A stretch of 64,000 nt of DNA from Paraburkholderia rhynchosiae (GTDB taxonomy: Bacteria; Pseudomonadota; Gammaproteobacteria; Burkholderiales; Burkholderiaceae), in NCBI RefSeq assembly GCF_002879865.1, contig NZ_PNXY01000004.1, forward strand, positions 124,001 through 188,000, read 5' to 3'. A model generated the notes under the pieces. The model worked only from the letters and a program-made list of their open reading frames with translations, had not been told where the DNA came from and did not search any database. The translations under genes were made by a program, and so were the position numbers. Positions 3,602-54,493 of the stretch are shown one piece after another (position 1 is the stretch's first letter; every line of letters starts with the position of its first letter).

Positions 3602-3636
3602 ACGGCGGCGCGTCGCGTGCTCACGCGTGCGCCGTT
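3602..3636 (+). terminator. Terminator-like hairpin between convergent genes
   Basis: ACGGCG (3602-3607) pairs with CGCCGT (3630-3635), with a second inner pairing CGCGTG/CACGCG, followed by TTTCCT. It lies between convergent genes ending at 3477 and 3672 and could serve the first. There is no long T-run, so the call is tentative. Confidence 0.4.
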
Positions 3637-3671
3637 TCCTGATCGTCACTCCTGAGCGTCATTCCTCGCCG

Positions 3672-3893
3672 TCATTCATTACCCACGCCCTTCGATACCT
3701 CCGCGGGACTCCCATACTCCTGCTCCGGCAGGCGTTCCAGCGCGTCGAGTACTTCGTCGTCGGCGCCGTTGCCTTTCGCCGTATCGAGCAGACTCGCTTT
3801 GTCAGCGGGGTACGAGGCGCCCTTCAAAGCCTTCTGGACATCGATGAATTTGCGGATCGGACCGCCGTTCGAATTCGTCCTGGACGTTGGCAT
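3672..3893 (-). CDS. DUF2795 domain protein
   Basis: A 73-residue protein. The second half carries the compact helical motif of DUF2795: KALKGASYPADKASLL, then a loop NGADDEV and LDALERLPEQEYGSPAEV. Members are small cytoplasmic proteins of unknown function, often stress-induced. A start at 3908 (MKEMHMPTSR) is also open, but the ATG at 3893 has GAAGGAG seven bases upstream, so it is preferred. It is divergent from the hybrid kinase gene at 4098, and its body rules out the upstream start codons of that kinase. Confidence 0.85.
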   Translation of the reverse strand: MPTSRTNSNGGPIRKFIDVQKALKGASYPADKASLLDTAKGNGADDEVLDALERLPEQEYGSPAEVSKGVGNE

Positions 3894-4097
3894 GTGCATC
3901 TCCTTCACGTTCGCGATCTAAGTGGCAGACGATGCAGCATCGCGCGTTCCTTGCGACCCTGTGGAAGGTTTCGTGCCGCGACGAAGATGCGGCTCGGCAT
4001 CTGCCGCATCGGGAATGAATCTGGCTCGTCATACGCATTAGGCCGCCGCAACACGAGCGGCTCACTTTCGTCACCCAAGCAAGCAAGGGATCTTGCC

Positions 4098-13034: not shown

Positions 13035-13123
13035 CTATTGATCGAAGCCGCGCAGCATGGCGCTCAATTCATCCATGCTATAGGGCTTGCGAAGCGCTCC
13101 CCAATGAAACGGCAGTGTGTTGA
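12626..13123 (+). CDS. Doubtful ORF or gene remnant
   Basis: A 165-codon open frame in the gap upstream of the hsp20 pair, overlapping the 3' end of the hybrid kinase on the other strand. GGAG lies nine bases before the ATG. The first half has codon use unlike a Burkholderia gene, but from about 12855 (ETAIASVPGMMPSQVRIFVT, then EEVDFHFGVYERMLAGKF) it reads like real protein. I do not recognise it. It may be the decayed 3' part of a gene or chance. Confidence 0.2.
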   Translation: MEFDSDRLTPGTASRTSALAKGLSHRRTANRRARHTHCDREQQERTSAAHGCCSARGKNVRLSVGTTSADDRPCAPQLETAIASVPGMMPSQVRIFVTVVTQEEVDFHFGVYERMLAGKFSGLPPIPAAAASSCMPTIDRSRAAWRSIHPCYRACEALPNETAVC

Positions 13124-15380: not shown

Positions 15381-15672
15381 TAACCTGCTCCATGGAGAAT
15401 AGGCCGACGACCTAGTCTGCAATTTAATGCGCCGGGAACGGCGCACCGCGTATTTTCTTCTGTTGTTCCGTATTGTCTTGCACGCAAAGCCTTTAAATGT
15501 CACCGCCTTTGGGCTTTATGCGTATTGCGACATTTTATTAGCGAACGCGCGCGATATGAAGCGGTGTTTCCGTAAGGGCCGCTTCCGCTGGACGTAAGCG
15601 TTTGGGAACCCGTAGGTACGCCGATTGCTACCTTGTCGCAAACGCCCCATCCCGAACCCACCGCGCGGAAGT

Positions 15673-40292: not shown

Positions 40293-41021
40293 ATGACGCA
40301 ATCGCGCTACCGTCTACTCGTCGTTTCTCCACATCTCGACGACGCCGTATTGAGTTGCGGCATGTTGCTCGCCGCAAACCCGTCCGCCGTCGTCTGCACG
40401 GTTTTCACGGCGCCGCCCCGCGAGAACATGTTGACCGACTGGGACCGCCAATCGGGCTTCGACGACGCGTTGCAGGCCATGCAAGCCCGTAAGAAAGAGG
40501 ACATTCACGCGCTGCAGATCTTAGGCGCGCAGCCTGCCCATCTGCCCTTCTGCGATGCGCAATATCGGCTCACTCCGTCGCACGAGAGTTTGGTCGACGC
40601 ACTCGAACAAACGTTAGATGAGCACAAGCCGGAAACAGTGATGATCCCGTTGGGCCTGTTCCACTCCGATCACACGCTGGTGTCCGACGCGTGCCTCGCG
40701 GTAATGCCGGGCATGCGTCGCGTCCGGTTCCTCGCCTATGAAGATGTGCCCTATCGGCACATGGAGGACCTGGTGCCGAGGCGCATTGCAGAACTGACGA
40801 AACGCGGCTATATGCTGGGCGTCCCAGACGATCTCGACACCGCCGCCACTTGCGGCACCGCGCAAGAAGAGCGGCTGAAGCGCGAAGCAATCGCCGCCTA
40901 TGCGAGCCAGTTGCGCGCATTCGGTCCAGAAGGCGAAGCCGCGCTCTACTCACCGGAAAAATATTGGCTGCTGCAAAGATTTGAAAACAAACTGAAACCC
41001 GGAGGCACATCGTTTGCTTGA
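40293..41021 (+). CDS. PIG-L family deacetylase
   Basis: A 242-residue zinc hydrolase. The metal motif VSPHLDDAVLS stands at residues 11-21 and a second His-containing motif is FHSDHTLVSDACL. PIG-L enzymes remove acetyl groups from N-acetylglucosamine-type substrates such as GlcNAc-PI, mycothiol and bacillithiol precursors, or lipid-linked sugars. It overlaps the following GT2 gene by eight bases, so the two likely act on the same glycan. It is divergent from the flavodoxin-like gene. Confidence 0.9.
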   Translation: MTQSRYRLLVVSPHLDDAVLSCGMLLAANPSAVVCTVFTAPPRENMLTDWDRQSGFDDALQAMQARKKEDIHALQILGAQPAHLPFCDAQYRLTPSHESLVDALEQTLDEHKPETVMIPLGLFHSDHTLVSDACLAVMPGMRRVRFLAYEDVPYRHMEDLVPRRIAELTKRGYMLGVPDDLDTAATCGTAQEERLKREAIAAYASQLRAFGPEGEAALYSPEKYWLLQRFENKLKPGGTSFA

Positions 41022-42000
41022 AGCGGGCATTGCCTCGTTAAGAAAAAAGAACAGCATGGAAAAGACATCGCTTTCCCGGCGCATTTCGGTAGTCGTTCTG
41101 ACACACAACCGCGCCGACGAACTTGTCGCTACTCTCAAGCGCTTAGTCGCCCTTCCAGAAAGCCCGCCCATCTTCGTGGCGGATAACGGTTCGAACGACA
41201 ATACAGTCGCGCTCGTGAAGACGCTGTTTCCGACCGTATGCATCGTCGAATGCAGAGGCAATCTCGGCGCGGCCGGGCGCAATCGCGCCGCTGCCTACGT
41301 CGGCACGGACTATGTTGCGTTTTGCGACGACGACACCTGGTGGGAACCAGGCTCTCTCCAACGCGCGGTGCAACTCCTCGATGCGTGGCCGAATGTCGGT
41401 GTATTGAGCGCGCGCGTCGTGGTAGGAGAAGACAAGATCACCGACCCGACCTGCTCGGTGATGCGCGCCAGTCCACTCGGCAGCGAGGGCTTGCCTGGCC
41501 CCGCGTTGATCGGCTACATGGCGGGCGCGTGCGTGTTTCGCACATCGCTGTTTCGCCAGTTAGGGGGCTATGAGCCGCGCCTTTTTATCGGCGGCGAAGA
41601 AGAACTCGTCGCGCTCGATGTGCTCGCATCGGAGCACGCCATTGTCTATTGCGATCAATTGACCGTGCATCATCACCCGTCGCCGGCGCGCGATAGCGGC
41701 TTGCGGCGGCGCACGCTCGCGCGCAACGCCGCCTGGATTGCGTGGCTGCGCCTGCCTTGGCCCGAAGCCTGCCGCGCGACCATGCAGGCGCTCACCACAT
41801 TCGCACGGGAAGGCACGCTCGCGCGCGACGGCCTTCCCATGCTGCGCGGTCTCGCATGGGCGTTGAGACGGCGCAACATGGTGCCGCATCATGTGCTGAA
41901 TCTCCGTGAGCGCGTGCGCGCAGGCGAGCGGCAGATAGCAGCGCCGGCACCGAACACTCGCGCGAAGCCTACGGTAAGCAAAGCGAACGCGCGCACCTGA
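41014..42000 (+). CDS. Family 2 glycosyltransferase
   Basis: A 328-residue inverting GT-A enzyme. The core reads ISVVVLTHNRADELVATLKR, ADNGSNDNT, NLGAAGRNRAA and FCDDDTWWEPGS, the last holding the DxD-type metal site. A second acidic motif is GGEEELVALDVL. It may add a sugar in polysaccharide assembly. The TTG at 41014 has GGAGG about eight bases upstream; the ATG at 41056 is an alternative start. A C-terminal basic, Ala-rich tail follows residue 290. Confidence 0.87.
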   Translation: MLEAGIASLRKKNSMEKTSLSRRISVVVLTHNRADELVATLKRLVALPESPPIFVADNGSNDNTVALVKTLFPTVCIVECRGNLGAAGRNRAAAYVGTDYVAFCDDDTWWEPGSLQRAVQLLDAWPNVGVLSARVVVGEDKITDPTCSVMRASPLGSEGLPGPALIGYMAGACVFRTSLFRQLGGYEPRLFIGGEEELVALDVLASEHAIVYCDQLTVHHHPSPARDSGLRRRTLARNAAWIAWLRLPWPEACRATMQALTTFAREGTLARDGLPMLRGLAWALRRRNMVPHHVLNLRERVRAGERQIAAPAPNTRAKPTVSKANART

Positions 42001-42043: not shown

Positions 42044-44725
42044 CTACGCGCCGGTACGCGCGGACGCCATCGCGAGGTTACGAATCTCGCCGATCAGCTT
42101 CTCCGGCGAAACCGGCTTTGTCAGATGCGCCTGAAAACCCGCCATCTTCGCGCGCATGCGGTCTTCGCTCTGCGCATAGCCGGTCAACGCGATGGCCGGC
42201 ACGCGGTCCTGTAGCGGCAGTTGCCGCTCGGCTTCGAGCCGCCGCAAACGGCGCAGTACGTCGTAGCCGTCTTCATCCGTGAGCACGATGTCGCATAGCA
42301 ATGCATGCGGCCATTGCGTCGTGGCCGTATGCGCGAGCCAGTCCAATGCTTCCTTGCCCGACGACGCGGTTCGCACACGTGCGCCGCTCGATGCGAGCAC
42401 CGCTTCGAGCGCGTCGAGTGCATCTTCCTGGTCGTCGATAGCCATGACGAAGAGGCCTTCGAGTGGCGATGCGCCGTCGATCACCAACGGCCACGGCGCC
42501 GCCGGCGACCTCGAATCCGCGTCGGCCAGCGGACGCAGCGGCAACATCGCCACATACGCAAGCCGGCCATTCAACGGCATCAGCGTGAAGCTGCCGCCCG
42601 CGGCGGACAGCGCCTCTTCCATATAGCGCGCCGCCGCTTGCGACAATTCGGCGGGCTCCTCGCCCATGCCCAGCACGCTGACCCACGCGTGATTGTTGTG
42701 CCGCTCGACGCGCAATTCGATGCGCTGCCCCGGCTTCGCCTGCACGATCTCATTGCGGCACAGTTCGGCGATCAGCGGTTGAAGAACACTCGGATCGCCG
42801 GTCACGCGCAGATCGTTGTCGCTGATGTCCGGGTACAAGGTCACGCGCCGCGCAGCGATTTCGTCGTGCAATGCATCGATCACGCCGGCCATCAATGCCG
42901 CGAGACTCACCGACTGCGCGGTGAGCTTGCGCTGCGCGTGCTCCAGTTCTCCCTGCTGCCATTGCAGAGACCACATCTTCGCGTAGACGCCATCGCGCGC
43001 AAGCAGTTCGCGGTGCGTGCCCTGCTCGACCACGCGGCCATGCTCCATCACGAGAATCCAGTCGGCGTCGACCACCGTTGAGAGCCTGTGCGCAATCACA
43101 ATCGACGTGCGACCCTGCGCGAGCCGCGTCAATTCGGTTTGTATCGCCCGTTCGGAGCGCGTATCGAGCGCGGACGTGGCCTCGTCGAAAACAATGATGC
43201 GCGGGTCCTTGAGGATCGCGCGCGCAATCGCGATGCGCTGCCGCTCGCCGCCCGAAAGCCGCACGCCGCGTTCGCCGACGCGCGTGTCGTAATGATCCGG
43301 CAAACGTTCGATGAATTCGTCGAGCTGCGCCGCGCGCGCCGCACGCACAACGTCCGCGCGCGTTGCGGAAGGCCGGCCGTATGCGATGTTGTAGGCGATG
43401 GTTTCGTTGAACAGCACCGTATCTTGCGGCACGATGCCGATGGCTTCGCGCAGGCTCTTCTGCGTAACCTGCCCGATGTCCTGGCCGTCTATGCGGATCT
43501 TGCCGCCATTCGGCTGATAAAGACGAAACAGCAGTTTCACGAGTGTCGACTTGCCCGAGCCGCTTCCGCCGACTATCGCCAGCGTCTTGCCCGGATACGC
43601 GTGGAAATCGACGTCGCGCAGTATCTGCCGCGCTGGGTCATAGCCGAAATCCACGTGCTCGAATGAGATTTGCCCGGCGCTCACCATTAGCGGCTTCGCG
43701 GCGGGCTCGTCGATATCTTCGCCCACGCGGCCGCGGGCCATCAGTATTTCAAACATACGCTCGACGTTGACCATCGCGTCGTTGGTCTCGCGAAATACGA
43801 AGCCGAGCGTGTTCAACGGCATGCAGATCTGGATGACGTACGCGTTCACCAGAATCAGATCGCCGACGCTCATACTTCCGGCCACCACATGCTGCGCCGC
43901 GAGGAGCATGATCGCGCCGATGCCGAACGCGATCACCGCGCTTTGCCCCACATGCAGCGCCGTCAGCGCGCGCTGGTTCGCGGTTCTCGCATGCACCCAT
44001 TTCTCGAGTACGGCGCCGAGGCGCCGCGTTTCGGTGTCTTCGGTCGCGAAGTATTTGACGGTGTCGTAGTTGAGCAGACTATCCACGAGCCGGCCATCCG
44101 ACTGCGCCTCCAGACCATTGACTGCACGCTGGAATGCGACCCGCCGCCGCGTGAAAATGAATGTATAAGCCGCATAGCAGACGAAAGTCGCGGCAATCGC
44201 GATCATGAACCCGCGCGCGTAGTTGTGAATCATGATCGCGACGATGGTGGCGATCTCGAAGGCTGTCGGCACGATTGTGAACAACGCGACGCCGAGCAGA
44301 AAGCCGATGCCGTCAGCGCCTTTCTGCACGTCGCGCACGATTGCGCCGGTCTCGCGCCTGGTATGAAAGCGCGCACTCATCCGATGCAGGTGAGCGAAAG
44401 TCCGCTCGGTAAACGCGGCCACCGTGCGCTGCGTGACGATGCTGAATACCACGTCGCGCGCTTCGTTCAGCGCGTCGCCGAGAAAGCGCAGCAACGCATA
44501 CGCTAGTACGAGGAATACGGGAAACAGCGCTTGCGCAACAGGATGCCCCAATTCGTCGACAACATGCTTCAGCGCGAGCGGCATCAGCACGGTGGAGAGC
44601 TTGGCCGCGATCATCAGCAGCAACGCGGCTACGGTCTGATTGCGATAACGCCAGACCGCGCGCATGAGGTCCGCGGCAATGCGGCGGGTCAACTGGGAAC
44701 GGGGCAGCGTGGCGGGGTTCGGCAT
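42044..44725 (-). CDS. ABC exporter fused to a kinase-like ATPase domain and a receiver domain
   Basis: An 893-residue protein that joins two signalling worlds. Residues about 30-315 are a six-helix exporter transmembrane domain like Atm1/HMT (RETGAIVRDVQKGADGIGFL). The ATPase follows with Walker A GGSGSGKST (near 385), signature LSGGERQRIAIARAIL (near 487), Walker B IIVFDEATSALD and His-loop AHRLS. From about 585 to 720 comes a degenerate histidine-kinase CA-like segment (DPSVLQPLIAELCRNEIVQA then LRVERHNNHAWVSVLG) with no H-box. Residues about 757-890 are a receiver with phospho-acceptor Asp812 (LLCDIVLTDEDGYD) and switch Lys in HLTKPV. ATG 44725 has AGGGA upstream and is preferred over ATG 44755. 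It stands alone on the minus strand. Confidence 0.9.
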   Translation of the reverse strand: MPNPATLPRSQLTRRIAADLMRAVWRYRNQTVAALLLMIAAKLSTVLMPLALKHVVDELGHPVAQALFPVFLVLAYALLRFLGDALNEARDVVFSIVTQRTVAAFTERTFAHLHRMSARFHTRRETGAIVRDVQKGADGIGFLLGVALFTIVPTAFEIATIVAIMIHNYARGFMIAIAATFVCYAAYTFIFTRRRVAFQRAVNGLEAQSDGRLVDSLLNYDTVKYFATEDTETRRLGAVLEKWVHARTANQRALTALHVGQSAVIAFGIGAIMLLAAQHVVAGSMSVGDLILVNAYVIQICMPLNTLGFVFRETNDAMVNVERMFEILMARGRVGEDIDEPAAKPLMVSAGQISFEHVDFGYDPARQILRDVDFHAYPGKTLAIVGGSGSGKSTLVKLLFRLYQPNGGKIRIDGQDIGQVTQKSLREAIGIVPQDTVLFNETIAYNIAYGRPSATRADVVRAARAAQLDEFIERLPDHYDTRVGERGVRLSGGERQRIAIARAILKDPRIIVFDEATSALDTRSERAIQTELTRLAQGRTSIVIAHRLSTVVDADWILVMEHGRVVEQGTHRELLARDGVYAKMWSLQWQQGELEHAQRKLTAQSVSLAALMAGVIDALHDEIAARRVTLYPDISDNDLRVTGDPSVLQPLIAELCRNEIVQAKPGQRIELRVERHNNHAWVSVLGMGEEPAELSQAAARYMEEALSAAGGSFTLMPLNGRLAYVAMLPLRPLADADSRSPAAPWPLVIDGASPLEGLFVMAIDDQEDALDALEAVLASSGARVRTASSGKEALDWLAHTATTQWPHALLCDIVLTDEDGYDVLRRLRRLEAERQLPLQDRVPAIALTGYAQSEDRMRAKMAGFQAHLTKPVSPEKLIGEIRNLAMASARTGA

Positions 44726-44755: not shown

Positions 44756-45217
44756 TGGGCCGCCGCCGAAAAGTGAACTTGAGCAGGTTCGCAGGCGGGT
44801 TCATAAAGCGGCGCAACGAAAAACGCGGAACAGGTTTGCCGCGCCGAGGCCCATAACGAGCAAGCGTTGAGCCCGCCATCGGACAAAACTTAGCACAGCG
44901 AGAACGTGAACGACAGCCACTATTAAGGGCGCATCGCCGTGCAAAAACTTCGCGCTTCTCCCTCGCCCGCTGCTCGAATTTACATGACCGCTTGTAGAAA
45001 AAGGGAACGCCACACCGCTTGTTTCCTTTGAAAAAGGGAACGCTACAGCGCTTCTCCGTACCCCGCGCCATATTGCGCTTCGCGGTCTGCCGCGAGCTTA
45101 TAGGCACACGACATGCTGTGGCCGGGTAACAGCGTCGTATTGCGCGAAATTGCATAAGAGTGCTCAGCAAAGCGCGCCATTGATGCCCCGCTAATGCCAT
45201 CTCGCGAAGGATTGTCA
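44756..45217. other. Gap between the ABC fusion and the glycan cluster
   Basis: 462 bases with promoters for two divergent genes. It holds two 24-bp direct repeats (44997-45053) and no gene that I can support. Confidence 0.6.
44997..45053. repeat. Two 24-bp direct repeats, 33 bp apart
   Basis: Copies at 44997-45020 and 45030-45053 begin GAAAAAGGGAACGC and end CGCTT; they differ at two positions. The start-to-start spacing of 33 bp is close to three helical turns, as in tandem operators. The second copy ends 164 bases before the glycosyltransferase ATG. Confidence 0.75.
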
Positions 45218-46513
45218 ATGAAGATCGCCCTCATCAGTGAACACGCCTCGCCCCTCGCCGTTGCCGGAGGCGTCGACAGCGGAGGACAGAACATTTACGT
45301 CGCGAATGTCGCGCGTCAACTGAAGGAGATGGGTCATCAAGTGGATGTGTTCACGCGGCGCGACCGCGCGTTGCTGCCGCTCGTGTCCGACATGGAGGGC
45401 GTCCGCGTCATTCATGTTCCAGCCGGGCCGCCGATGCAGTTGCCCAAGGAATTGCTGCTGCCTTTCATGGATGAATTCGCCGCATTTCTCATCGAGTTCT
45501 TTCGCCGCGAGAAGACGCCCTATGACGTGATGCACGCGAACTTCTTCATGTCGGGTCTCGCCGCGTTGACAGTGAAAGCGGCGCTCGGCGTGCCGCTCGT
45601 TATGACGTTTCATGCGCTTGGCCGGGTGCGCCGGATCCATCAGGGAGCAAACGACGGCTTCCCTGACGAACGTTTCGCGATCGAGGACGACCTGGTTGCG
45701 CAGTCCGACGTGGTAGTTGCCGAATGCCCGCAGGACGAAGCGGACCTGATCGAACACTACCAGGCCGACCCCGCGCGCATCGAGATCGTGCCGTGCGGTT
45801 TCGACGCCGACGAGTTTCATCCGATGGATCGCGCCACCGCCCGTGACGCGCTCGGCTGGCAGCAGGACCAGTTCACCGTGCTGCAACTGGGGCGCCTTGT
45901 GCAGCGCAAGGGCATCGACAACGTGGTGCGCGGCGTCGGCCTTCTGAAGAAAGCGTTCAGGACGTCCGCGCAACTCTATGTGGTGGGCGGCAACTCCGAC
46001 GCACCGAACGAGAAGGCCACGCCGGAAATCGCGCGCTTGCGCGGCATCGCACGCGAATGCGGCGTGGCCGATCAGACCAACTTCGTCGGACGGCGCGGGC
46101 GCGCGCAATTGCGCTACTTCTATAGCGCCGCGGACGTATTCGTGACGACACCATGGTACGAGCCGTTCGGCATCACGCCCGTCGAAGCAATGGCCTGCGG
46201 CACGCCGGTAGTCGGCGCCGATGTGGGCGGAATCCGCTATTCGGTAGCCGACGGCATCACCGGCTTCCTCGTGCCGCCGCGCGATCCAGCCGCGCTGGCC
46301 GCGCGTCTGAACCTGTTGCGGCGCGACCCCGCGCTCGCGCGCCGCATGGGCGAAGCGGGTCTCGAACGCGCGCGCAAGGAGTTCACCTGGCGCGGCGTGG
46401 GCGAATCGCTCGCGCAAATCTATATGCGCACCGCGCGGCTCGTGCCGGCGAAAACCGCGGAGGAACGCGTGGCGGTTCCGTTGCGAGCCGCGGCCGGCGC
46501 GTCGTTCCGCTAG
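45218..46513 (+). CDS. Family 4 glycosyltransferase (sucrose-synthase/MshA-like)
   Basis: A 431-residue GT-B retaining enzyme. The N-terminal ISEHASPLAVAGGVDSGGQN and YVANVARQLKEMGH resembles the start of sucrose-phosphate synthase and MshA. The donor site is YEPFGITPVEAMACGTPVVG, with LQLGRLVQRKGIDNVVRG opening the C-terminal domain. The donor is a nucleotide sugar, and the acceptor may be sugar, inositol or a lipid-linked glycan. ATG 45218 has AAGGATT about six bases upstream. First gene of the glycan cluster, which ends with a UDP-xylose synthase-like gene. Confidence 0.9.
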   Translation: MKIALISEHASPLAVAGGVDSGGQNIYVANVARQLKEMGHQVDVFTRRDRALLPLVSDMEGVRVIHVPAGPPMQLPKELLLPFMDEFAAFLIEFFRREKTPYDVMHANFFMSGLAALTVKAALGVPLVMTFHALGRVRRIHQGANDGFPDERFAIEDDLVAQSDVVVAECPQDEADLIEHYQADPARIEIVPCGFDADEFHPMDRATARDALGWQQDQFTVLQLGRLVQRKGIDNVVRGVGLLKKAFRTSAQLYVVGGNSDAPNEKATPEIARLRGIARECGVADQTNFVGRRGRAQLRYFYSAADVFVTTPWYEPFGITPVEAMACGTPVVGADVGGIRYSVADGITGFLVPPRDPAALAARLNLLRRDPALARRMGEAGLERARKEFTWRGVGESLAQIYMRTARLVPAKTAEERVAVPLRAAAGASFR

Positions 46514-46621
46514 GAGGCCACATACCGACGCTAGCTGCGACACAGCCTGGTTTTGCCGAGCCGAGGCGGACGCGTTGTCCGCTTCCGGCGATTCGCTCAC
46601 GTTTTCCGCACCGCCTTCATC

Positions 46622-47227
46622 ATGTTGCAACCCGCTGTGTTTTTCGACAAAGACGGTACGTTGCTCGACGACGTGCCCTACAACATCGATCCCTCGCTGA
46701 TGCGCCTCGCGCCCGGCGCGCGCGACGCGTTGACACTGCTCGCGAGCCAGCCGTTCGCGCTCTTCGTGATCAGCAATCAGTCGGGCGTCGCGCTCGGCAA
46801 GTTCCAGCGCGCGGCGTTAAAGGGAGTGGAAGCCGAACTCGCGCGCATGTTCGTCGAATGCGGCGCAACGCTCTGCGGCGCGTACTGGTGCCCGCATCAT
46901 CCCGACGGCACGGTGGCGCCCTACGCGACCGGCTGCGATTGCCGCAAGCCAGCGCCCGGATTGCTGCTGCGCGCGGCTCGCGAGCACAAGCTCGATCTCG
47001 CGCGAAGCTGGTTCATTGGAGACATTCTCGACGATGTCGAAGCGGGCAACCGCGCGCGATGCCGCACGATTCTGCTCGACAACGGCCATGAAACCGAGTG
47101 GATAGAAGGACCACAGCGAGTGCCGACCGCGCGCGCCGCGGATCTGCACGAAGCGGCGCAAATCGTCGCGCGCAGTGCCGAAGCCGCGTCGCGCCCCGCG
47201 CCCGCCGGCGAGGAAACCGCTCAATGA
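46622..47227 (+). CDS. gmhB: D-glycero-heptose-1,7-bisphosphate 7-phosphatase-like HAD hydrolase
   Basis: A 201-residue HAD phosphatase. The catalytic motif is VFFDKDGTLLDDVPYN (Asp9 and Asp11 region), the phosphate-binding Ser/Thr motif is VISNQSGVALGKF, and the zinc loop Cys residues are in YWCPHHPDGTV and CDCRKPAPG. That Cys-His zinc loop is specific to the GmhB/HisB-N class, so a heptose phosphate substrate is likely. It ends with an ATGA overlap with the GT9 gene. GmhB makes the heptose precursor used by heptosyltransferases. Confidence 0.88.
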   Translation: MLQPAVFFDKDGTLLDDVPYNIDPSLMRLAPGARDALTLLASQPFALFVISNQSGVALGKFQRAALKGVEAELARMFVECGATLCGAYWCPHHPDGTVAPYATGCDCRKPAPGLLLRAAREHKLDLARSWFIGDILDDVEAGNRARCRTILLDNGHETEWIEGPQRVPTARAADLHEAAQIVARSAEAASRPAPAGEETAQ

Positions 47228-48531
47228 ATGCGCCGCTTCTGATCGTTCAACCGACGTTCGCTCACGCTCGCGTGCCCGACACGCCGCAACTCGCGCATTG
47301 GGGCGAGGACATCAAGCGCATTCTGTGCGTGCGGCTCGACAATCTCGGCGACGTGCTGATGACCACGCCCGCGCTGCACGCATTGCGCGAGTCGGCGCCC
47401 GGCCGTCATATCACGCTCCTCGCGTCGCGCAGCGGCGTGGCGCTGGCGCCGTTTCTGGATGATGTCGACGACGTCATCGAATATGAAGCGCCGTGGGTCG
47501 CGAATCCGCTCGCGAGTTCACGCTCGCTCGCCGACGATCGACGCATGCAGGAACGCTTGCGGCGCGGCGGCTTCGACGCCGCCGTGATCTTTACCGTCTA
47601 TAGCCAGAGCCCGTTGCCCGCGGCGATGCTGTGCTATCTGGCGGGCGTCCCACGGCGGCTCGCGCATTGCCGCGAAAACCCGTATGCGCTGCTCACGGAC
47701 TGGCTGCGCGAGCCGGAGCCCCAACAGCGCACGCGTCATGAAGTCGAGCGGCAGCTCGACCTCGTGCGTCAGGTTGGCGCGCAAGCGCCCGACACGCGCA
47801 TGCGTTTCGCAGTGCAGCAGTCCGATCGCGAGACGCTGCACGCGCAGTTAACCGCGAGAGGCATTGACGATAAATCGCACGGCAAGGCGCAAGGCAACGC
47901 ACTGGAAAAAGCGCAATGGATCGTGCTGCATCCAGGTGCCACCGCCGCATCGCGCCGATATCCGCCCGAGCGCTTCGGCCAGGTGGCGACGCGCCTCGCG
48001 CGCGAGACCGGCGCGCCGCTGCTGATCTCCGGCAGTGCGAGCGAGCGCTCTCTCGCCGATGCAGTGATCGACGCGGCCGCGCCTGCCGTTCGCGGGCAAC
48101 TGCACGATTTGAGCGGCGCGCTCACGCTCGGCGAACTTGCGGCGCTGATCGAACGCGCAAGCGTACTCGTTTCGAATAACAGCGGGCCGGTGCATCTCGC
48201 ATCGGCGCTGGGCACACCGGTCGTCGATCTGTATGCGTTGACCAATCCTCAGCACACGCCGTGGCAAACGCCGAATCGCGTGCTGTTTCGCGATGTCGAA
48301 TGCCGCTGGTGCTATCGCAGCGTATGTCCGCAACATCATCACGCATGCCTGCTTGGCGTGGCGCCTGGGGAGGTCGTGAACGCGGCGCTCGAATTGCGCG
48401 CGCAAGTGCAGTCGCGCACCGCGGCGGCCGCGTCCAGCTCTTCCGGCACATCCGGTTCGTCCGAAAACCAATCCAACGCCCACCACAGCGACGCGGCGCC
48501 GCCGCTCGCCGATGAACCCGTGGCTCCCTGA
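47224..48531 (+). CDS. Family 9 glycosyltransferase (heptosyltransferase-like)
   Basis: A 435-residue GT-B enzyme of the ADP-heptose transferase group. ILCVRLDNLGDVLMTTPALH is the N-terminal acceptor-binding motif, and WIVLHPGATAASRRYPPERF plus VSNNSGPVHLASALGTPVVD are the nucleotide-binding C-terminal motifs. It joins the heptose phosphatase by an ATGA overlap, which supports use of an activated heptose. The C-terminus is a low-complexity Ala/Ser/Gln tail of about 40 residues. Confidence 0.92.
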   Translation: MNAPLLIVQPTFAHARVPDTPQLAHWGEDIKRILCVRLDNLGDVLMTTPALHALRESAPGRHITLLASRSGVALAPFLDDVDDVIEYEAPWVANPLASSRSLADDRRMQERLRRGGFDAAVIFTVYSQSPLPAAMLCYLAGVPRRLAHCRENPYALLTDWLREPEPQQRTRHEVERQLDLVRQVGAQAPDTRMRFAVQQSDRETLHAQLTARGIDDKSHGKAQGNALEKAQWIVLHPGATAASRRYPPERFGQVATRLARETGAPLLISGSASERSLADAVIDAAAPAVRGQLHDLSGALTLGELAALIERASVLVSNNSGPVHLASALGTPVVDLYALTNPQHTPWQTPNRVLFRDVECRWCYRSVCPQHHHACLLGVAPGEVVNAALELRAQVQSRTAAAASSSSGTSGSSENQSNAHHSDAAPPLADEPVAP

Positions 48532-48555: not shown

Positions 48556-50301
48556 ATGTACACACTCGGAATCAATGCCGTCTATCACGACAGCGCCGCA
48601 GCCTTGCTGCGCGACGGTGTGGTGCTCGCCGCAGCGGAAGACGAACGCTTCACGCACGTCAAGCATGCGAAGCGCCCCGTGCCCTTCTCGACCTGGCAAC
48701 TGCCGTTCGATGCGATCGACTACTGCCTGAAAGCCGCCGGCATCACGCTGGGAGACGTCGACCATGTGGCGTACTCCTACGATCCGAGCCTCTTCAGCGG
48801 CATGCCCAAGCGTCCCGGCGCGACCATCGAGTTGCCGTTCGATCCGGCCAACACGCGCCTCTCCGACCCGTCGGCGTCGCCGTGGGACCCGCTGTTTCTG
48901 AGCTACATCGCGAACGCCAAAGGGCAATTGCTCGACGGTGCGCCGCATCATCTGCGCAAACGCTTTCAGGGCGTGGACCGCGACAACGGCTTCAAGTGGC
49001 ACTTCGTCGAGCATCACCTCGCGCATGAGGCGAGCGCGTTTCTCGCCGCGCCGTACGACGACACCGCCGTGCTCACCATGGACGGCCGTGGCGAAGGCGT
49101 GACGACCAGCATGGGGCAATTTGTCGACGGCGAATACACGCGGCTCAAACAGGTAGAACTGCCGCACTCGCTGGGTCTGCTCTATGAAGCCGTGACGGAC
49201 TGGCTAGGCTTTCTGCATTCGTCGGACGAGTACAAGGTGATGGCCCTCGCCTCGTACGGCAAGCCGGAATACGTCGACGTGTTCCGCGACATCGTCCACT
49301 ATCGTGGCGACGGCAGCTATACCGTCGACGCCCCGCGCCTCGTCAAACGTTTCGGCCCGGCGCGCGAACGCGGTGGTCCGCTCGAACAGCGCCATTTCGA
49401 CATCGCGCATTCGTTGCAGCGCGTGCTGGAGGAAACCGTGCTGCAACTCGCGGGCTGGTTGCATGAAAAGACGGGTCTGAGCAAGCTCACCATGGCGGGC
49501 GGCGTCGCGCTGAACTGTGTGATGAATTCGAAGCTGCGCGACGCGGGCCCCTTCGAGGACGTATGGGTGCAGCCCGCCGCAGGCGACGCCGGCACTGCGC
49601 TCGGCGCGGCGCTGTGGATCGATTACCGCACCCGCGCCGAGAACGGCGACCGCAAGCGTCATTGGACAATGGATCACGCGTACCTCGGCCCCGAGTATCC
49701 GGAAGAGGAAATCGAACAGTTCCTGCAATGGTCGAAGGTGCCTTATCGGCGGCTTGGCGACATTGCCGGTGAAACGGCCGACCTGCTCGCCAACGGCCAG
49801 GTGATCGGCTGGTATCAGGGCCGCACGGAGTTTGGTCCGCGAGCGCTCGGCGCGCGCTCGATTCTCGCGTCGCCGGTCGATCCGCACATGCAGGCCAGGC
49901 TCAACGAGATCAAGGACCGCGAGGACTTCCGTCCGGTCGCGCCGGTCGTGATGGAAGAACTCGCGAGCGAATGGTTCGTGAACGGCAACGTCGCGCCGTT
50001 CATGCTGTTCGTGTTCGACGTGCGCGCCGAGAAGGCCGCGCGCATTCCGGCCGTGCGGCATGTGGACGGCACCGCACGCGTGCAGACCGTGAACCGCTCG
50101 CAGCATCCGCTTTACTACGACTTGCTGGCTGCGTTCAACGAGCGCACCGGCGTGCCGATTCTCGTCAACACGTCGTTCAATACGCGCGGTGAACCGATGG
50201 TGAATTCGCCGCGCGATGCAGTCGAGTCGTTCTGGACTTCGCCGCTCGACGCGCTCGTGATCGGTCCGTTCCTCGTCGAGAAAGCGCGGAGCGGCGCATG
50301 A
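48556..50301 (+). CDS. NodU/CmcH-family carbamoyltransferase
   Basis: A 581-residue enzyme that moves a carbamoyl group from carbamoyl phosphate to a hydroxyl of a sugar or antibiotic. The N-terminal half (LGINAVYHDSAAALLRDGVV) has an actin-like ATPase fold; the shared motif is FVEHHLAHEASAFLAAPYDD. The C-terminal YrdC-like half includes KLTMAGGVALNCVMNSKL and GRTEFGPRALGARSILASP. Its place inside a glycosyltransferase cluster argues for carbamoylation of a sugar, as NodU does for Nod factors. It overlaps the following GT2 gene by ATGA. Confidence 0.94.
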   Translation: MYTLGINAVYHDSAAALLRDGVVLAAAEDERFTHVKHAKRPVPFSTWQLPFDAIDYCLKAAGITLGDVDHVAYSYDPSLFSGMPKRPGATIELPFDPANTRLSDPSASPWDPLFLSYIANAKGQLLDGAPHHLRKRFQGVDRDNGFKWHFVEHHLAHEASAFLAAPYDDTAVLTMDGRGEGVTTSMGQFVDGEYTRLKQVELPHSLGLLYEAVTDWLGFLHSSDEYKVMALASYGKPEYVDVFRDIVHYRGDGSYTVDAPRLVKRFGPARERGGPLEQRHFDIAHSLQRVLEETVLQLAGWLHEKTGLSKLTMAGGVALNCVMNSKLRDAGPFEDVWVQPAAGDAGTALGAALWIDYRTRAENGDRKRHWTMDHAYLGPEYPEEEIEQFLQWSKVPYRRLGDIAGETADLLANGQVIGWYQGRTEFGPRALGARSILASPVDPHMQARLNEIKDREDFRPVAPVVMEELASEWFVNGNVAPFMLFVFDVRAEKAARIPAVRHVDGTARVQTVNRSQHPLYYDLLAAFNERTGVPILVNTSFNTRGEPMVNSPRDAVESFWTSPLDALVIGPFLVEKARSGA

Positions 50302-51377
50302 GTCCGTCCGCTACGGGACCGCTCGACGTAGGAACCAGATTCGGCAATCCGCAGAGCGCGGCCGAGCCGATTGCCGCCGGCTATCCGGGTGTGCTGCTGG
50401 CGCACATGGATGTGTCGGTGGTCGTGCCGACTTATCGCCGGCCCGATCTGCTCGCCGCTTGCCTGCGCGCACTGACTGCTCAGGACTTTCCCGCTGGCCG
50501 CTACGAAATCGTGGTCTGCGACGACGGTCCCGACGACGCCACGCGCGCGTGCGTCGCACGGATCGCGGCCGAGCAGGCCAAGCGCGGCCTCGCGGTGCGC
50601 TATGTACCCGTGACCCGCACCCAGGGCCCGGCGGGCGCGCGCAATGCCGGCTGGCAGCAAGCGCGCTCGCCAGTGATCGCCTTCACCGACGACGACACCT
50701 TGCCCGATCCGCAGTGGCTGCAAGAGGGTCTCGCAGCGATTCGCCAGGGCGCGGCTGCCGCCGCGGGCAGAATCGTCGTGCCGCTGCCGGCCTCGCCGAC
50801 CGACTATGAAGCGGACGCCAGCGGGCTGGAGAGCGCCGAGTTCGCGACCGCCAATGTATTCGTCGCCCGCAGCTTTCTGACGATGACAGGCGGCTTCGAC
50901 GAACGCTTCACGTCGGCCTGGCGCGAAGACTCCGATCTGCAATTCACGTTGTTGCAAGCGGGCGGCAAGATTGTGCGCGCGAACGAGGCGGTGGTCGTGC
51001 ATCCCGTGCGCCCCGCGCGTTGGGGCGTGAGCATCTCGCAACAAAGGAAGAGCCAGTTCGACGCGCTGCTCTACAAGAAGCACCCCGAACTCTTCAAGGC
51101 GCGCATTCGCTCGACGCCTCCGCTGCTCTACTACCTGATCCTGTGCGCCGTATTGGCCGCGCTGATCGGCGCACTCATCGGCGATGCGGCCACATGGACG
51201 ATCGCACTGCTGGCGTGGTTCGTGCTGACCACCTATTTCTGCGTGATGCGTTTGCGCGGACGGGATCGCGGTTTGCGACACATCGCTGAAATGGCGTGGA
51301 CGTCCATTCCCATTCCGTTTCTTTCGATCTTCTGGCGGCTCTACGGCGCCGTCCGTTACAAGGTGCTCTTTCTATGA
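50298..51377 (+). CDS. Family 2 glycosyltransferase with C-terminal membrane helices
   Basis: A 359-residue GT-A enzyme. DVSVVVPTYRRPDLLAACLR opens the domain; the metal site is in AFTDDDTLPDPQWL and the acceptor region in GGFDERFTSAWREDSDLQFT. Two membrane helices near the C-terminus (LLYYLILCAVLAALIGALIG and WTIALLAWFVLTTYFCVMRL) anchor it in the inner membrane, as in GT2 enzymes that use lipid-linked acceptors. ATGA overlaps on both sides couple it with the carbamoyltransferase and the second GT9. Confidence 0.92.
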   Translation: MSPSATGPLDVGTRFGNPQSAAEPIAAGYPGVLLAHMDVSVVVPTYRRPDLLAACLRALTAQDFPAGRYEIVVCDDGPDDATRACVARIAAEQAKRGLAVRYVPVTRTQGPAGARNAGWQQARSPVIAFTDDDTLPDPQWLQEGLAAIRQGAAAAAGRIVVPLPASPTDYEADASGLESAEFATANVFVARSFLTMTGGFDERFTSAWREDSDLQFTLLQAGGKIVRANEAVVVHPVRPARWGVSISQQRKSQFDALLYKKHPELFKARIRSTPPLLYYLILCAVLAALIGALIGDAATWTIALLAWFVLTTYFCVMRLRGRDRGLRHIAEMAWTSIPIPFLSIFWRLYGAVRYKVLFL

Positions 51378-52513
51378 ATGCAGCCTCGTTCCTCGCGACA
51401 CTCGCGCCGCGCCGCATCGTGATTTTCCGTGCACTGCAACTCGGCGACATGCTGTGCGCGGTGCCCGCGTTGCGCGCGCTACGCGCGGCCGTGCCACAAG
51501 CGCATATCGCGTTGATCGGCTTGCCGTGGGCGCAGTCGTTCGTCGAACGTTACACGGATCTTGTCGATGAACTGATCGTGTTTCCAGGCGCGGAGGGCTT
51601 TCCCGAGCAGCCCGAATCGAACGAGGGACTGCCCGCGTTTTATGAGCAGATGCGCGCGCAAGCTTTCGATCTGGCGATCCAGTTGCATGGCAGCGGCGGG
51701 ATCGCGAACGATCTGCTGCTTCAATTCGGCGCGCGCGCTTACGCGGGCTTCGTGCAGCCTGACGAGCCGCAACGCGATGGTGTATTCATCGGCTGGCCCG
51801 ATGACTTGCCCGAGTCCGAACGCTACCTTGCATTGATGAGCGCGCTGGGCGTTCACACTTCCAATCGGCAGCTGTCGTTTCCGCTCAGCGAACGCGACGG
51901 CGACGAATATGCTTCGCTGATGGCCGCGCACGGCCTCGAAGCTCAACGTCTCGTGCTGGTTCATCCTGGCGCGCAATTGCCGTCGCGCCGTTGGCCCGCA
52001 GAGCGTTTCGCGGAAGTCGCCGATCGTCTCGCCGCCGACGGCTGGCAGATCGCCATCACCGGGACCGCTGCAGAAGCGCCGCTCACCGGCGCGGTGCTCG
52101 GCGCGATGACCGCGCCCGCGTTGCATCTGGCCGGCACGACGTCGCTCGGCGGACTTGCCGCGCTGGTCGCTCACGCACGGCTCGTGGTCTGCAACGACAC
52201 CGGCATTTCGCACATTGCCGCGGCCATGGCCACTGAATCCGTTGTGATCGCTTCGGGCAGCGACACGCAGCGCTGGGCGCCGCTCGACCACGCGCGGCAT
52301 CGCGTGCTCGCCGACTATCCGCCGTGCCGCCCCTGCATGTTCCGCGAGTGCCCTTACGGCCATCCCTGCGCGCTCAATATCAGCGTCGATCGCGTCGTCG
52401 AGACGGCGCGCGCGCAACTGACTCAGGTCCACGGCGCTCATCCTGCCGCTCCGTACGCATTGCATACACAGCCCGAAGGCGGGCCGTTCGAGGAGTTGCA
52501 TCATGTTGCGTGA
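51374..52513 (+). CDS. Family 9 glycosyltransferase (heptosyltransferase-like), second copy
   Basis: A 379-residue GT9 enzyme with RRIVIFRALQLGDMLCAVPA, LVLVHPGAQLPSRRWPAERF and VVCNDTGISHIAAAMATESV. It differs from the GT9 at 47224 in length and in the C-terminal Cys-rich segment DYPPCRPCMFRECPYGHPC, which is common in the LPS-type GT9s and may bind a metal. Two GT9 enzymes point to two heptose residues in one product. Confidence 0.92.
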   Translation: MNAASFLATLAPRRIVIFRALQLGDMLCAVPALRALRAAVPQAHIALIGLPWAQSFVERYTDLVDELIVFPGAEGFPEQPESNEGLPAFYEQMRAQAFDLAIQLHGSGGIANDLLLQFGARAYAGFVQPDEPQRDGVFIGWPDDLPESERYLALMSALGVHTSNRQLSFPLSERDGDEYASLMAAHGLEAQRLVLVHPGAQLPSRRWPAERFAEVADRLAADGWQIAITGTAAEAPLTGAVLGAMTAPALHLAGTTSLGGLAALVAHARLVVCNDTGISHIAAAMATESVVIASGSDTQRWAPLDHARHRVLADYPPCRPCMFRECPYGHPCALNISVDRVVETARAQLTQVHGAHPAAPYALHTQPEGGPFEELHHVA

Positions 52514-53459
52514 CTGCCGCCGTCTCCGTGTGCTGACATGGCACGTGCACGGCAACTATCTGTATTACCTGACCCAGGCGCCGCACGATTTTTATCTCGT
52601 CACGAAGCCCGGCAATCCGCCCGGGTACGCGGGCAAAGTGGGCGTGCTGCCGTGGGGCGAAAATGTGCACGAAATCAATGCGGACGATGTGCCCGATCAG
52701 GAATTCGACGTGATCCTGTATCAGCATAAAACGCATTGGGAATACGACCGCGAGCATGTGCTGAGCGAAGCGCAGCGCCGGCTTCCGCGCGTGTATGTCG
52801 AGCACGATCCGCCGCAGGAAAATCCGTTTCAGCAATGGCATTGGGTCGACGATCCGGACACGCTGCTAGTCCACGTCACGCACTTCAATCAGTTGATGTG
52901 GGATTGCGGCGTCACGCCGACGCGCGTGATCGAACACGGCGTGGTGGTGCCCGAAGGCGTGCGCTATAGCGGCGAACTCGAACGCGGCATTGTCGTCGTG
53001 AATCATCTCGCGCAGCGCGGGCGGCGGCTTGGTGCGGACGTATTCGCCGAAACACGCACCCGTGTGCCGCTCGATCTCGTCGGCATGGATGCGCAGCGGC
53101 TCGACGGCATCGGCGAAATCGGCAATCTCGAACTGGCCGCGTTCAGCGCGCGCTATCGCTTCTTCTTCAATCCGATTCGCTGGACCAGTCTCGGGCTCGC
53201 CATCGTCGAAGCCATGACGATCGGCATGCCGATTGTCGGTCTCGCGACCACCGAACTCGCGACCGTTATCCGCAACGGCGAAAACGGCTTCGTGCATACG
53301 GACGTGAATGCGCTCGTCGACGCAATGCATGAACTGCTGCGCAATCCCGACGAGGCGCGGCGTCTGAGCGAAGGCGCGCGGCGCACCGCGCTGGAGCGGT
53401 TTCACATCGACCGTTTTGCGCAGGACTGGCACGACGTATTGCTGCAAGTCACCGCGTAA
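52503..53459 (+). CDS. Glycosyltransferase family 1/4-like protein
   Basis: A 318-residue GT-B protein. The C-terminal donor half is plain: [20 protein letters not shown] then [16 protein letters not shown], with the E-x7-E-like pair around residue 236. The N-terminal domain is short ([20 protein letters not shown]), and [18 protein letters not shown] is a distinctive acceptor-side loop. It overlaps the second GT9 by 11 bases, so it belongs to the same operon. The donor is unknown; the next gene could supply UDP-xylose. Confidence 0.85.
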
Positions 53460-53497: not shown

Positions 53498-54493
53498 ATG
53501 AAAGAACTTACCCGCAAGCGGATTCTGGTCACGGGCGGCGCCGGCTTTCTCGGCTCGCACCTGTGCGAGCGGCTCGTGACGCAAGGTCACGACGTGCTGT
53601 GCGTCGACAACTTCTATACGGGCACGAAGGACAACATCGCGCATCTGCTCGACTGCGCGAACTTCGAGTTGATGCGTCACGACGTGACCTTTCCGCTTTA
53701 CGTCGAGGTGGATCAGATTTATAACCTCGCGTGCCCCGCTTCGCCGATTCACTATCAGCACGATCCGGTGCAAACCACCAAGACGAGCGTGCACGGCGCG
53801 ATCAATATGCTCGGCCTCGCCAAGCGCCTACAAGCCAGAATCTTCCAGGCGTCGACAAGCGAAGTGTATGGCGATGCACTCGTGCATCCGCAGAAAGAAG
53901 ATTACTGGGGCCACGTGAATCCAATCGGCCCACGCTCGTGTTACGACGAGGGCAAGCGTTGTGCGGAAACGCTCTTCATGGATTACCGCCGTCAGCATGG
54001 GCTGTCCATTCGCATCGCGCGTATCTTCAATACGTATGGGCCGCGCATGCATCCCGCCGATGGCCGCGTCGTATCGAACTTCATGATGCAGGCGTTACGC
54101 GGCGAGCCGCTCACGCTGTATGGCGACGGCTCGCAAACGCGTTCGTTCTGCTACGTGGACGACATGATCGACGCGTTTATCCGCTTGATGAATACGGCCG
54201 ACGATCCCGGCGGCCCGGTCAATCTCGGCAATCCGTATGAGGTCAGTATGCGCGAGATCGCGCAACGGATCGTCGCGATTACGGGCTCCAATTCGCCGCT
54301 CGAATTGCATCCGTTGCCAACGGATGACCCGTGGCATCGTCAGCCGGATATTTCGCGCGCTCGCGAATTGCTCGGCTGGCAGCCGAAAACCTCGCTTGAC
54401 GACGGCCTTGAAGAGACTGTGCGTTACTTCCGCGCGCGGATCGAAGCAACCTCCGCACGCGAGTCCGCGGCTCAGCGTCCGGCTCTGACATAA
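53498..54493 (+). CDS. UDP-glucuronate decarboxylase (UDP-xylose synthase)-like SDR
   Basis: A 331-residue extended short-chain dehydrogenase. The NAD-binding motif [19 protein letters not shown], catalytic [14 protein letters not shown] and the Y-x3-K pair in [12 protein letters not shown] are all present, as are [16 protein letters not shown] and the late [15 protein letters not shown]. This set of motifs is that of UXS rather than of GalE or RmlB. It would convert UDP-glucuronate to UDP-xylose for the neighbouring transferases. AAGGACG precedes the ATG. It overlaps the convergent recQ gene by 22 bases. Confidence 0.88.

What the first reader, a model, noticed from the sequence alone, without database searches (positions are those of the whole stretch)
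42044..44725. ABC exporter fused to a kinase-like ATPase domain and a receiver domain
One 893-residue chain joins an Atm1/HMT-type exporter with complete ATPase motifs, a degenerate histidine-kinase CA-like segment without an H-box, and a receiver with a phospho-acceptor Asp and the switch Lys. The sequence directly shows these motifs in order. Transporters fused to receivers are not a standard class I know of. It suggests an exporter whose activity is set by phosphotransfer, or a transporter-linked sensor. The orphan hybrid kinases at 4098 and 13035 are possible phosphodonors only by proximity.
Basis: partly seen in the sequence, partly recalled or inferred. Interest (0 to 1): 0.78.

Follow-up and report, generated by a model that had tools for sequence, protein, structure and literature searches.

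The report
Membrane exporter with signal-receiver tail
A bacterial membrane pump is joined in one protein to the tail end of a signalling kinase, a joint kept across many Burkholderia relatives and mostly found next to the same sugar-building genes, and the signal-receiver domain at its end is predicted to switch the pump on or off.

Summary
Confirmed. One minus-strand frame (44725-42044, 893 aa) joins an Atm1-type ABC exporter (intact ATPase motifs), a histidine-kinase CA fold without H-box or catalytic motifs, and a receiver with an intact phospho-site (Asp812, Lys870). Not an assembly error: 64 of 66 homologues found through the middle segment, and 115 of the 120 listed through an exporter half, carry the receiver. 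Each half forms one clade, so one fusion event fits. The receiver quintet is intact in 56 of 62 aligned members. The exporter belongs to a conserved glycan locus: all 67 genomes with the tail in a 249-genome family sample have its carbamoyltransferase, 64 within 12 kb. Two glutathione-pocket residues are replaced (Arg to Gln 62/62; Asn to His 59/62), suggesting a new substrate. Some relatives inside the clade lack the receiver, so it is an add-on. Best reading (inferred): phosphorylation of Asp812 sets export of this locus's product. The hybrid kinase at 13035-15503 is a plausible donor: a homologue lies within 40 kb in 8 of 13 fusion-bearing relatives. Substrate, donor and effect are untested. 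My searches found no paper on an ABC exporter fused to a receiver.

The parts
42044..44725 (-). whole fusion gene, 893 aa (ATG at 44725)
43814..44629 (-). ABC exporter transmembrane domain (residues 33-304)
43172..43621 (-). ABC ATPase core (residues 369-518); Walker A, Walker B and signature residues 62/62, Q-loop 61 of 62 plus one gap, H-switch (residue 546, just outside) 62/62
44129..44131 (-). Gln199, at the position of NaAtm1 Arg210 / AtAtm3 Arg328 in the glutathione pocket
   Evidence: Gln 62/62 in fusions, Arg 16/17 in unfused Atm1
43952..43954 (-). His258, at the position of NaAtm1 Asn269 / AtAtm3 Asn387 in the glutathione pocket
   Evidence: His 59/62 in fusions (Asn in P0072, P0074, P0075), Asn 17/17 in unfused Atm1
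42920..42988 (-). predicted continuous helix 580-602 joining the ATPase domain to the CA-like segment
   Evidence: model
42536..42916 (-). CA-like (pseudo-HATPase) segment, residues 604-730; no H-box before it, no G1 box, shortened lid region
42467..42520 (-). variable linker, residues 736-753 (dN/dS 0.452)
42083..42448 (-). receiver domain, residues 760-881
   Evidence: Pfam Response_reg 1.1e-18
42290..42292 (-). Asp812, predicted phospho-acceptor
   Evidence: 62/62
42116..42118 (-). Lys870, receiver switch lysine
   Evidence: 59/62, Arg in 3
40293..41021 (+). PIG-L type deacetylase
41014..42000 (+). GT2 glycosyltransferase, tail to tail with the fusion (43 bases between)
45194..46513 (+). 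GT4 glycosyltransferase, divergent from the fusion
46553..47227 (+). HAD phosphatase, GmhB-like
47098..48531 (+). GT9 (heptosyltransferase-like); start uncertain
48556..50301 (+). NodU-type carbamoyltransferase, used as marker of the locus
50298..51377 (+). GT2 glycosyltransferase (d1)
51296..52513 (+). GT9 glycosyltransferase (d2)
52503..53459 (+). GT4-like glycosyltransferase, Glycos_transf_1 (d3)
53498..54493 (+). NAD-dependent sugar epimerase/dehydratase (d4)
13035..15503 (-). PAS hybrid histidine kinase, candidate phosphodonor
   Evidence: Pfam PAS, HisKA, HATPase_c, two receiver stretches; linked to the exporter in 8 of 13 relatives

Best explanation
The protein is an Atm1-type ABC exporter that carries, on the same chain, a kinase CA fold without its catalytic motifs and a receiver domain with an intact phosphorylation site, and phosphorylation of Asp812 by a separate kinase is predicted to switch export of a product that is likely made by the neighbouring glycan genes. 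Shown: the architecture, its conservation, one clade for each half, absence of the H-box and CA motifs, retention of the receiver site, linkage to the glycan locus, and two nearly fixed changes in the glutathione pocket; the CA fold rests on a confident predicted model. Inferred: the chain dimerises like other half-exporters; the CA-like domain acts as a rigid adaptor held by helix 580-602, which runs on from the end of the ATPase domain; phosphorylated receivers change how the two tails pair or touch the ATPase domains, and so raise or lower ATP turnover. A hybrid kinase such as the one at 13035-15503 is the likely donor in this genus. The direction of the effect is not predicted with confidence; activation is slightly favoured.
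For: Receiver quintet intact in 56 of 62 while the catalytic CA motifs are gone: the receiver, not the kinase part, is kept functional. Purifying selection on CA-like segment and receiver, dN/dS 0.072 and 0.094, against 0.452 in the linker between them (10 sequences). Fusions form one clade in the tail tree (43 fusions vs 31 kinases, SH-aLRT 100) and in the exporter tree (33 vs 19 unfused, 99). Genus and order sample: exporter of this clade in 14 of 59 genomes (one copy broken), carbamoyltransferase in the same 14. Family sample: 67 of 67 genomes with the tail have the carbamoyltransferase (89 of 249 overall), 64 within 12 kb. In Achromobacter loci L071, L074, L079 the exporter lies in one co-directional run with the glycan genes. 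Pocket: Arg to Gln 62/62, Asn to His 59/62 and the same pair in 24 of 24 further clade members looked at. The C-terminal helix of another half-exporter, BmrA, is reported as needed for ATPase activity (PMC11774805, abstract). A free receiver, EpsW, is reported to stimulate a polysaccharide enzyme post-translationally (PMC12802240, abstract).
Against: The receiver is missing from some working-looking relatives: CA-like only in G434, G466, G442, G426 and G492, neither in G533; CA-like only in P0177, neither in P0152; these lie inside the fusion clade (which used four of the five CA-like-only genomes), so export does not always need it. Six of 62 have a changed receiver residue. No kinase is linked in every genome: 5 of 13 relatives show none of this type within 40 kb. 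No gene of the glycan set lies within the fetched flanks in 8 of 47 fusion loci (L061-L064, L066, L068, L069, L073), and two of 11 genomes checked (G341 Methyloversatilis, G343) have no carbamoyltransferase at E<=1e-60. Of 89 carbamoyltransferase genomes, 8 show only an unfused Atm1-like match or none. The full model has pTM 0.62, so the placing of the tail under the ATPase domains is unknown. I found no functional data.
Confidence: 0.55

Rival explanations
1. The tail is a scaffold: it stabilises the dimer or docks the exporter on the glycan enzymes, and phosphorylation has little role.
For: The CA-like fold is kept without its catalytic motifs; the receiver is missing in some lineages while the CA-like part stays.
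Against: A pure scaffold would not need the phospho-site, which is intact in 56 of 62.
Confidence: 0.17
2. The transporter is the sensor: its transport cycle changes access to the receiver, which then takes phosphate from, or returns it to, a phosphorelay as a reporter or sink.
For: Hybrid-kinase type receiver; hybrid kinases lie near the fusion in L069 and L073; an NtrC-type regulator lies near the locus in L065, L072, L073 and L145-L148.
Against: No phosphotransfer partner was found linked in all loci; the chain shows no H-box (0 of 62) and so is not expected to start a signal itself.
Confidence: 0.15
3. It exports a thiol or metal conjugate like other Atm1 proteins, and its place beside glycan genes is incidental. 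(This concerns the substrate and can hold together with receiver control.)
Against: Two other pocket residues listed as conserved from NaAtm1 to human ABCB7 (passages of PMC9000953) are changed in nearly all members; a separate unfused Atm1 with the usual pocket letters is in the same genome; co-occurrence with the glycan locus is 67 of 67 in the family sample.
Confidence: 0.25
4. Assembly error or chance read-through joining two genes.
For: None found.
Against: 64 of 66 and 115 of 120 listed homologues carry the receiver; both halves form one clade.
Confidence: 0.01

Closest known systems
NaAtm1 and the Atm1/ABCB7/ABCB6 half-exporters
   Different: Has CA-like and receiver domains after the ATPase; the position of pocket Arg210 is Gln and that of Asn269 is His; sits in a glycan locus
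Hybrid histidine kinases (HisKA-HATPase_c-receiver)
   Same: The tail is homologous to their contiguous CA-receiver part: 29 kinase frames match the tail profile with E down to 2e-65; 17 of 29 show the H-box pattern and 28 of 29 a G1-type motif
   Different: No phospho-accepting His found, no working CA motifs; the input part is replaced by an exporter
Transporter-kinase fusions (CbrA/CrbS type symporter-kinases, Ks-Amt5 ammonium transporter-kinase); recalled, no call
   Same: A transporter and two-component parts on one chain
   Different: Those carry a kinase and are taken as sensors; here the kinase function is gone and only a receiver remains
EpsW/EpsZ of Myxococcus xanthus (PMC12802240, abstract read)
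   Same: A receiver reported to control a polysaccharide pathway after translation, with direct contact proposed
   Different: EpsW is a separate protein acting on a phosphoglycosyl transferase, not an exporter
BceAB-BceRS transporter-kinase complexes; recalled, no call
   Same: ABC transporter coupled to a two-component system
   Different: Separate proteins; the transporter controls the kinase

Membership tests
Atm1/ABCB7-type ABC half-exporter | Same fold and sequence family | tested here: met
Atm1/ABCB7-type ABC half-exporter | Complete ATPase motifs | tested here: met
   Walker A, Walker B, signature and H-switch residues 62/62; Q-loop 61 of 62 plus one gap
Atm1/ABCB7-type ABC half-exporter | Glutathione-pocket residues conserved in AtAtm3, NaAtm1, ScAtm1, ABCB7, ABCB6 (T317, R324, R328, N387, Q390, L433, G437, R441 of AtAtm3) | tested here: not met
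   R328 position is Gln 62/62 and N387 position is His 59/62; T317, R324, Q390 positions kept 62/62, G437 and R441 61/62, L433 position (L304) invariant. So Atm1-like by descent and fold, not shown to be a glutathione exporter
Atm1/ABCB7-type ABC half-exporter | Transport or ATPase stimulation by GSSG | not testable with these tools
   needs protein
Histidine kinase | DHp domain with H-box histidine | tested here: not met
   0 of 62 match H[ED]xR at 575-645; most frequent His columns there 26 and 24 of 62
Histidine kinase | CA fold | tested here: met
Histidine kinase | N, G1 and G2 nucleotide motifs | tested here: not met
   N-box Asn column Asn in 36 of 62; DxGxG in 2 of 62, both away from the G1 place (one in the linker, one near residue 719); no HATPase_c hit in the window protein, though one relative passes the Pfam cut-off. 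G2 was not scored by itself
Receiver (response regulator) domain | Asp pair, phospho-Asp, Thr/Ser, Lys | tested here: met
   window protein D764 D765 D812 T848 K870; 56 of 62 intact
Receiver (response regulator) domain | Takes phosphate from a cognate kinase | not testable with these tools
   only linkage of a candidate kinase, 8 of 13
Any NCBIfam exporter family | Score above the curated cut-off | tested here: not met
   best MsbA_lipidA 399.7 vs 602; the 25 families shown of 239 are all below cut-off

The most novel reading that the evidence does not exclude
This is a class of response regulator whose output is membrane transport itself: an ABC exporter gated by aspartyl phosphorylation of a built-in receiver, with a dead kinase domain turned into the coupling adaptor, and with a substrate pocket moved from glutathione to a carbamoylated glycan or glycolipid.
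Probability: 0.35. Interest if true: 0.85.

Novelty: new variant of a known kind. Interest (0 to 1): 0.68.

Why it matters
It would tie two-component signalling directly to an ABC motor, without transcription, and give a natural series (kinase, fusion with a near-intact CA, fusion with a decayed CA, CA only, no tail) in which to see how such control is built and lost. It also links a glycan locus that is widespread in Burkholderiales, and for which my two searches found no description, to its likely exporter, and makes that link testable by single gene removals.

Tried and rejected
Assembly error: rejected. Chance receiver match: rejected (Pfam 1.1e-18). The tail as a working kinase: rejected. 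His596 as a replacement phospho-acceptor: His in only 26 of 62. The 3627-6266 kinase as donor: close homologue in only 4 of 13 exporter-bearing relatives. A kinase orthologous in all loci: not found; the kinases near the locus or fusion in L151, L073 and L069 are only 30-34% alike to each other over the shared part, and the region around the NtrC-type regulator's best relative in the own genome matches none of the five kinases compared beyond a receiver-like stretch; its other genes were listed but not annotated. The 300-genome order sample at E<=1e-40 mixed 3 fusions with hybrid kinases (best kinase 1.4e-60), so the family count used E<=1e-64, which misses divergent fusions (G002, G023, G445); I did not read the exporter half of each of the 67 genomes, and nine rows are flagged with a stop inside the match, not looked into. 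NCBIfam names no family. VIA on the whole model covers mainly 9-596, so the CA-like part was folded alone. Full-text searches for an ABC exporter with a receiver or a like fusion and for the glycan locus listed no paper that describes one; I judged by titles and starts of abstracts, and the library holds only open-licence PMC papers. Passages of PMC9329353 and PMC6424863 were seen and not used for a claim.

The co-occurrence test (Fisher p 7.5e-42) is not corrected for shared ancestry. Trees are quick IQ-TREE runs with SH-aLRT only; the exporter tree used 33 fusions, a hand-picked part of those held. L128 (unfused, G175) sits at the base and is unresolved, so a first state without a tail is not excluded, and repeated loss is the simplest but not the only reading.

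Full report

WHICH PARTS WORK. In an alignment of 62 long members chosen from those held, the Walker A, Walker B, signature and H-switch residues are 62/62, the Q-loop 61 plus one gap. In the receiver, Asp812 is 62/62 and all five key residues are intact in 56 of 62; the exceptions are three with Gly at 765 and three with Arg at 870. In the CA-like part no member shows the H-box pattern (0 of 62), the N-box Asn column is Asn in 36 of 62, and DxGxG occurs in 2 of 62, neither at the G1 place. The Burkholderia-side members also have a shorter lid region: 145 residues against 150-179 in the others over the same span (L078 measured from a later start). Over ten close sequences (window and nine loci) dN/dS is 0.061 for the membrane domain, 0.026 for the ATPase, 0.072 for the CA-like part, 0.452 for the linker and 0.094 for the receiver. 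So the receiver is kept fit for phosphorylation while the kinase function is gone.

NOT AN ARTEFACT, AND ONE ORIGIN FITS. A search with only the middle segment found 66 proteins, 64 of them with the receiver Pfam domain. A search with the exporter half of P0057 lists the best 120 of 6290 hits, 115 with it; the five without are P0112, P0152, P0173, P0176 and P0177, of which P0173 is 916 aa long with a diverged end and P0112 comes from a 2.3-kb contig. Named hosts include Paraburkholderia, Caballeronia, Burkholderia glumae, Bordetella, Achromobacter, Pollutimonas, Azoarcus and the gammaproteobacterium Solimonas soli. The tail tree puts 43 fusions on one side and 31 kinases on the other (SH-aLRT 100); the exporter tree puts 33 fusions on one side and 19 unfused exporters on the other (99). 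The next relatives of the tail are hybrid kinases: of 29 matching kinase frames 17 show the H-box pattern and 28 a G1-type motif. The simplest reading is a duplicated Atm1-type exporter that captured the CA-receiver end of a hybrid kinase once.

RELATIVES WITHOUT THE RECEIVER. Of the 22 genomes with the carbamoyltransferase but no strong tail hit, three have divergent full fusions (G002, G023, G445), two have broken copies (G008, G530), five keep the CA-like part without the receiver (G434, G466, G442, G426, G492), one has neither (G533), two have a frame that stops matching inside the CA-like part (G432, G489), one is cut by the end of the contig (G392), and eight show only an unfused Atm1-like match or none (G373, G405, G414, G424, G435, G519, G532, G554). 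P0152 (neither part) and P0177 (CA-like only) are a second such pair. Both groups lie inside the fusion clade. The receiver therefore looks like an add-on that has been lost at least twice; the unfused L128 at the base is unresolved.

THE SURROUNDINGS. The gene sits between GT2 and GT4 glycosyltransferase genes, followed by a GmhB-like phosphatase, a GT9, a NodU-type carbamoyltransferase, GT2, GT9, a GT4-like gene and a sugar epimerase, with a PIG-L deacetylase on the other side. Of the 54 loci (L034-L080) hold the fusion or its remains; 39 of these 47 show at least one gene of the set in the fetched flanks, in Paraburkholderia, Caballeronia, Bordetella, Achromobacter, Parapusillimonas and Eoetvoesiella among others; in L071, L074 and L079 all run in one direction with the fusion. 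The eight without are L061-L064, L066, L068, L069 and L073. Eleven genomes were searched for the carbamoyltransferase: the eight of these loci and, for comparison, L067, L071 and G132; 9 of 11 match at E<=1e-60, 8 of them at E<=1e-220; G341 (L073) and G343 (L062) have none. In the sample of 59 relatives, the 14 with the exporter clade (G008 broken) are the same 14 with the carbamoyltransferase. In the family sample of 249 genomes, all 67 with a strong tail hit also have it, against 89 in all; 64 of the 67 have the two within 12 kb.

THE POCKET. Of eight glutathione-pocket residues that PMC9000953 (passages; first part of its Discussion) calls conserved from NaAtm1 to human ABCB7 and ABCB6, two are changed: the AtAtm3 Arg328 position is Gln in 62/62 fusions (Arg in 16/17 unfused) and the Asn387 position is His in 59/62 (Asn in 17/17). 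The same pair holds in 24 of 24 further clade members looked at, with or without the tail. The mapping of numbers rests on the alignments, checked. The own genome also has an unfused Atm1-like exporter (48% identical) with the usual letters. This points to a changed substrate, with the glycan locus as the best guide to what it is; the chemistry of that product is not known.

WHO PHOSPHORYLATES IT. The 13035-15503 kinase has PAS, HisKA, HATPase_c and two receiver stretches. Its homologues lie within 40 kb of the exporter in G025, G006, G012, G008, G028, G026, G023 and G002, that is 8 of 13, and not in G005, G021, G030, G014 and G024. Four of the eight share one arrangement (about 25-27 kb, about 90% identity); in the other four (60-69% identity) the spacing is about 6, 14, 16 and 37 kb and the side changes. 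All 13 are of one genus, so these are not independent. The kinase at 3627-6266 is found in only 4 of 13. In the receiver-less genus, both extended regions fetched hold a histidine kinase within the locus, and all four regions searched hold an NtrC-type regulator. These are leads, not proof.

MECHANISM. Inferred: two chains form one exporter; helix 580-602 of the model leads straight from the ATPase domain into the CA-like domain. The C-terminal helix is reported as needed for ATPase activity in BmrA (abstract). Phosphorylation of Asp812 would change receiver pairing or contacts and so the ATPase cycle. A free receiver acting on a polysaccharide enzyme after translation is reported for EpsW (abstract), so such control has a precedent.

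NOVELTY. Both parts are known kinds; their joint, with a dead kinase domain between, is not described in the papers I could search (open-licence PMC only). I file it as a new variant of a known kind, with a bolder reading given separately.

Noticed in passing
L151:4024-5790, L145-L148, L152: In the genus whose exporter lacks the receiver, the glycan locus itself holds a histidine kinase (two of two extended regions; hybrid by its sequence in L151) and an NtrC-type regulator next to a divergent relative of its sigma-54 part (four of four regions, by similarity); signalling may have moved to separate genes.
   Followed up: partly
L069:11037-13673; L073:2487-5720: Hybrid kinases lie close to the fusion in a gammaproteobacterial MAG and in Methyloversatilis; the L069 kinase shares its PAS part with the window kinase at 13035 (49.6% over 246 aa).
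   Followed up: partly
window 45194-46513 and 40293-41021: The GT4 scores best against mycothiol MshA (293.7 bits, below its cut-off 462.5) and stands with a PIG-L deacetylase, a pair recalled from mycothiol and bacillithiol pathways; no cysteine ligase was seen among the genes annotated here.
   Followed up: no
L064:7301-8188, L073:5717-6586: A BrkB/YihY-type membrane protein lies upstream of the fusion in Pollutimonas (Pfam) and, by eye from its sequence, in Methyloversatilis, where the glycan set is not adjacent.
   Followed up: no
window 15855-37612: The same region holds a COX1-type oxidase, cytochrome bd genes, a hemerythrin-like protein and a manganese catalase, hinting at an oxygen or redox stress island near the PAS kinase.
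   Followed up: no
L059, L080: Copies of the fusion split over several frames occur in a Caballeronia sp. contig and in the leaf symbiont Candidatus Burkholderia pumila; decay or sequence error was not told apart.
   Followed up: no
window 3627-6266: This hybrid kinase has HATPase_c and a receiver but no HisKA match at E<=1e-5.
   Followed up: no
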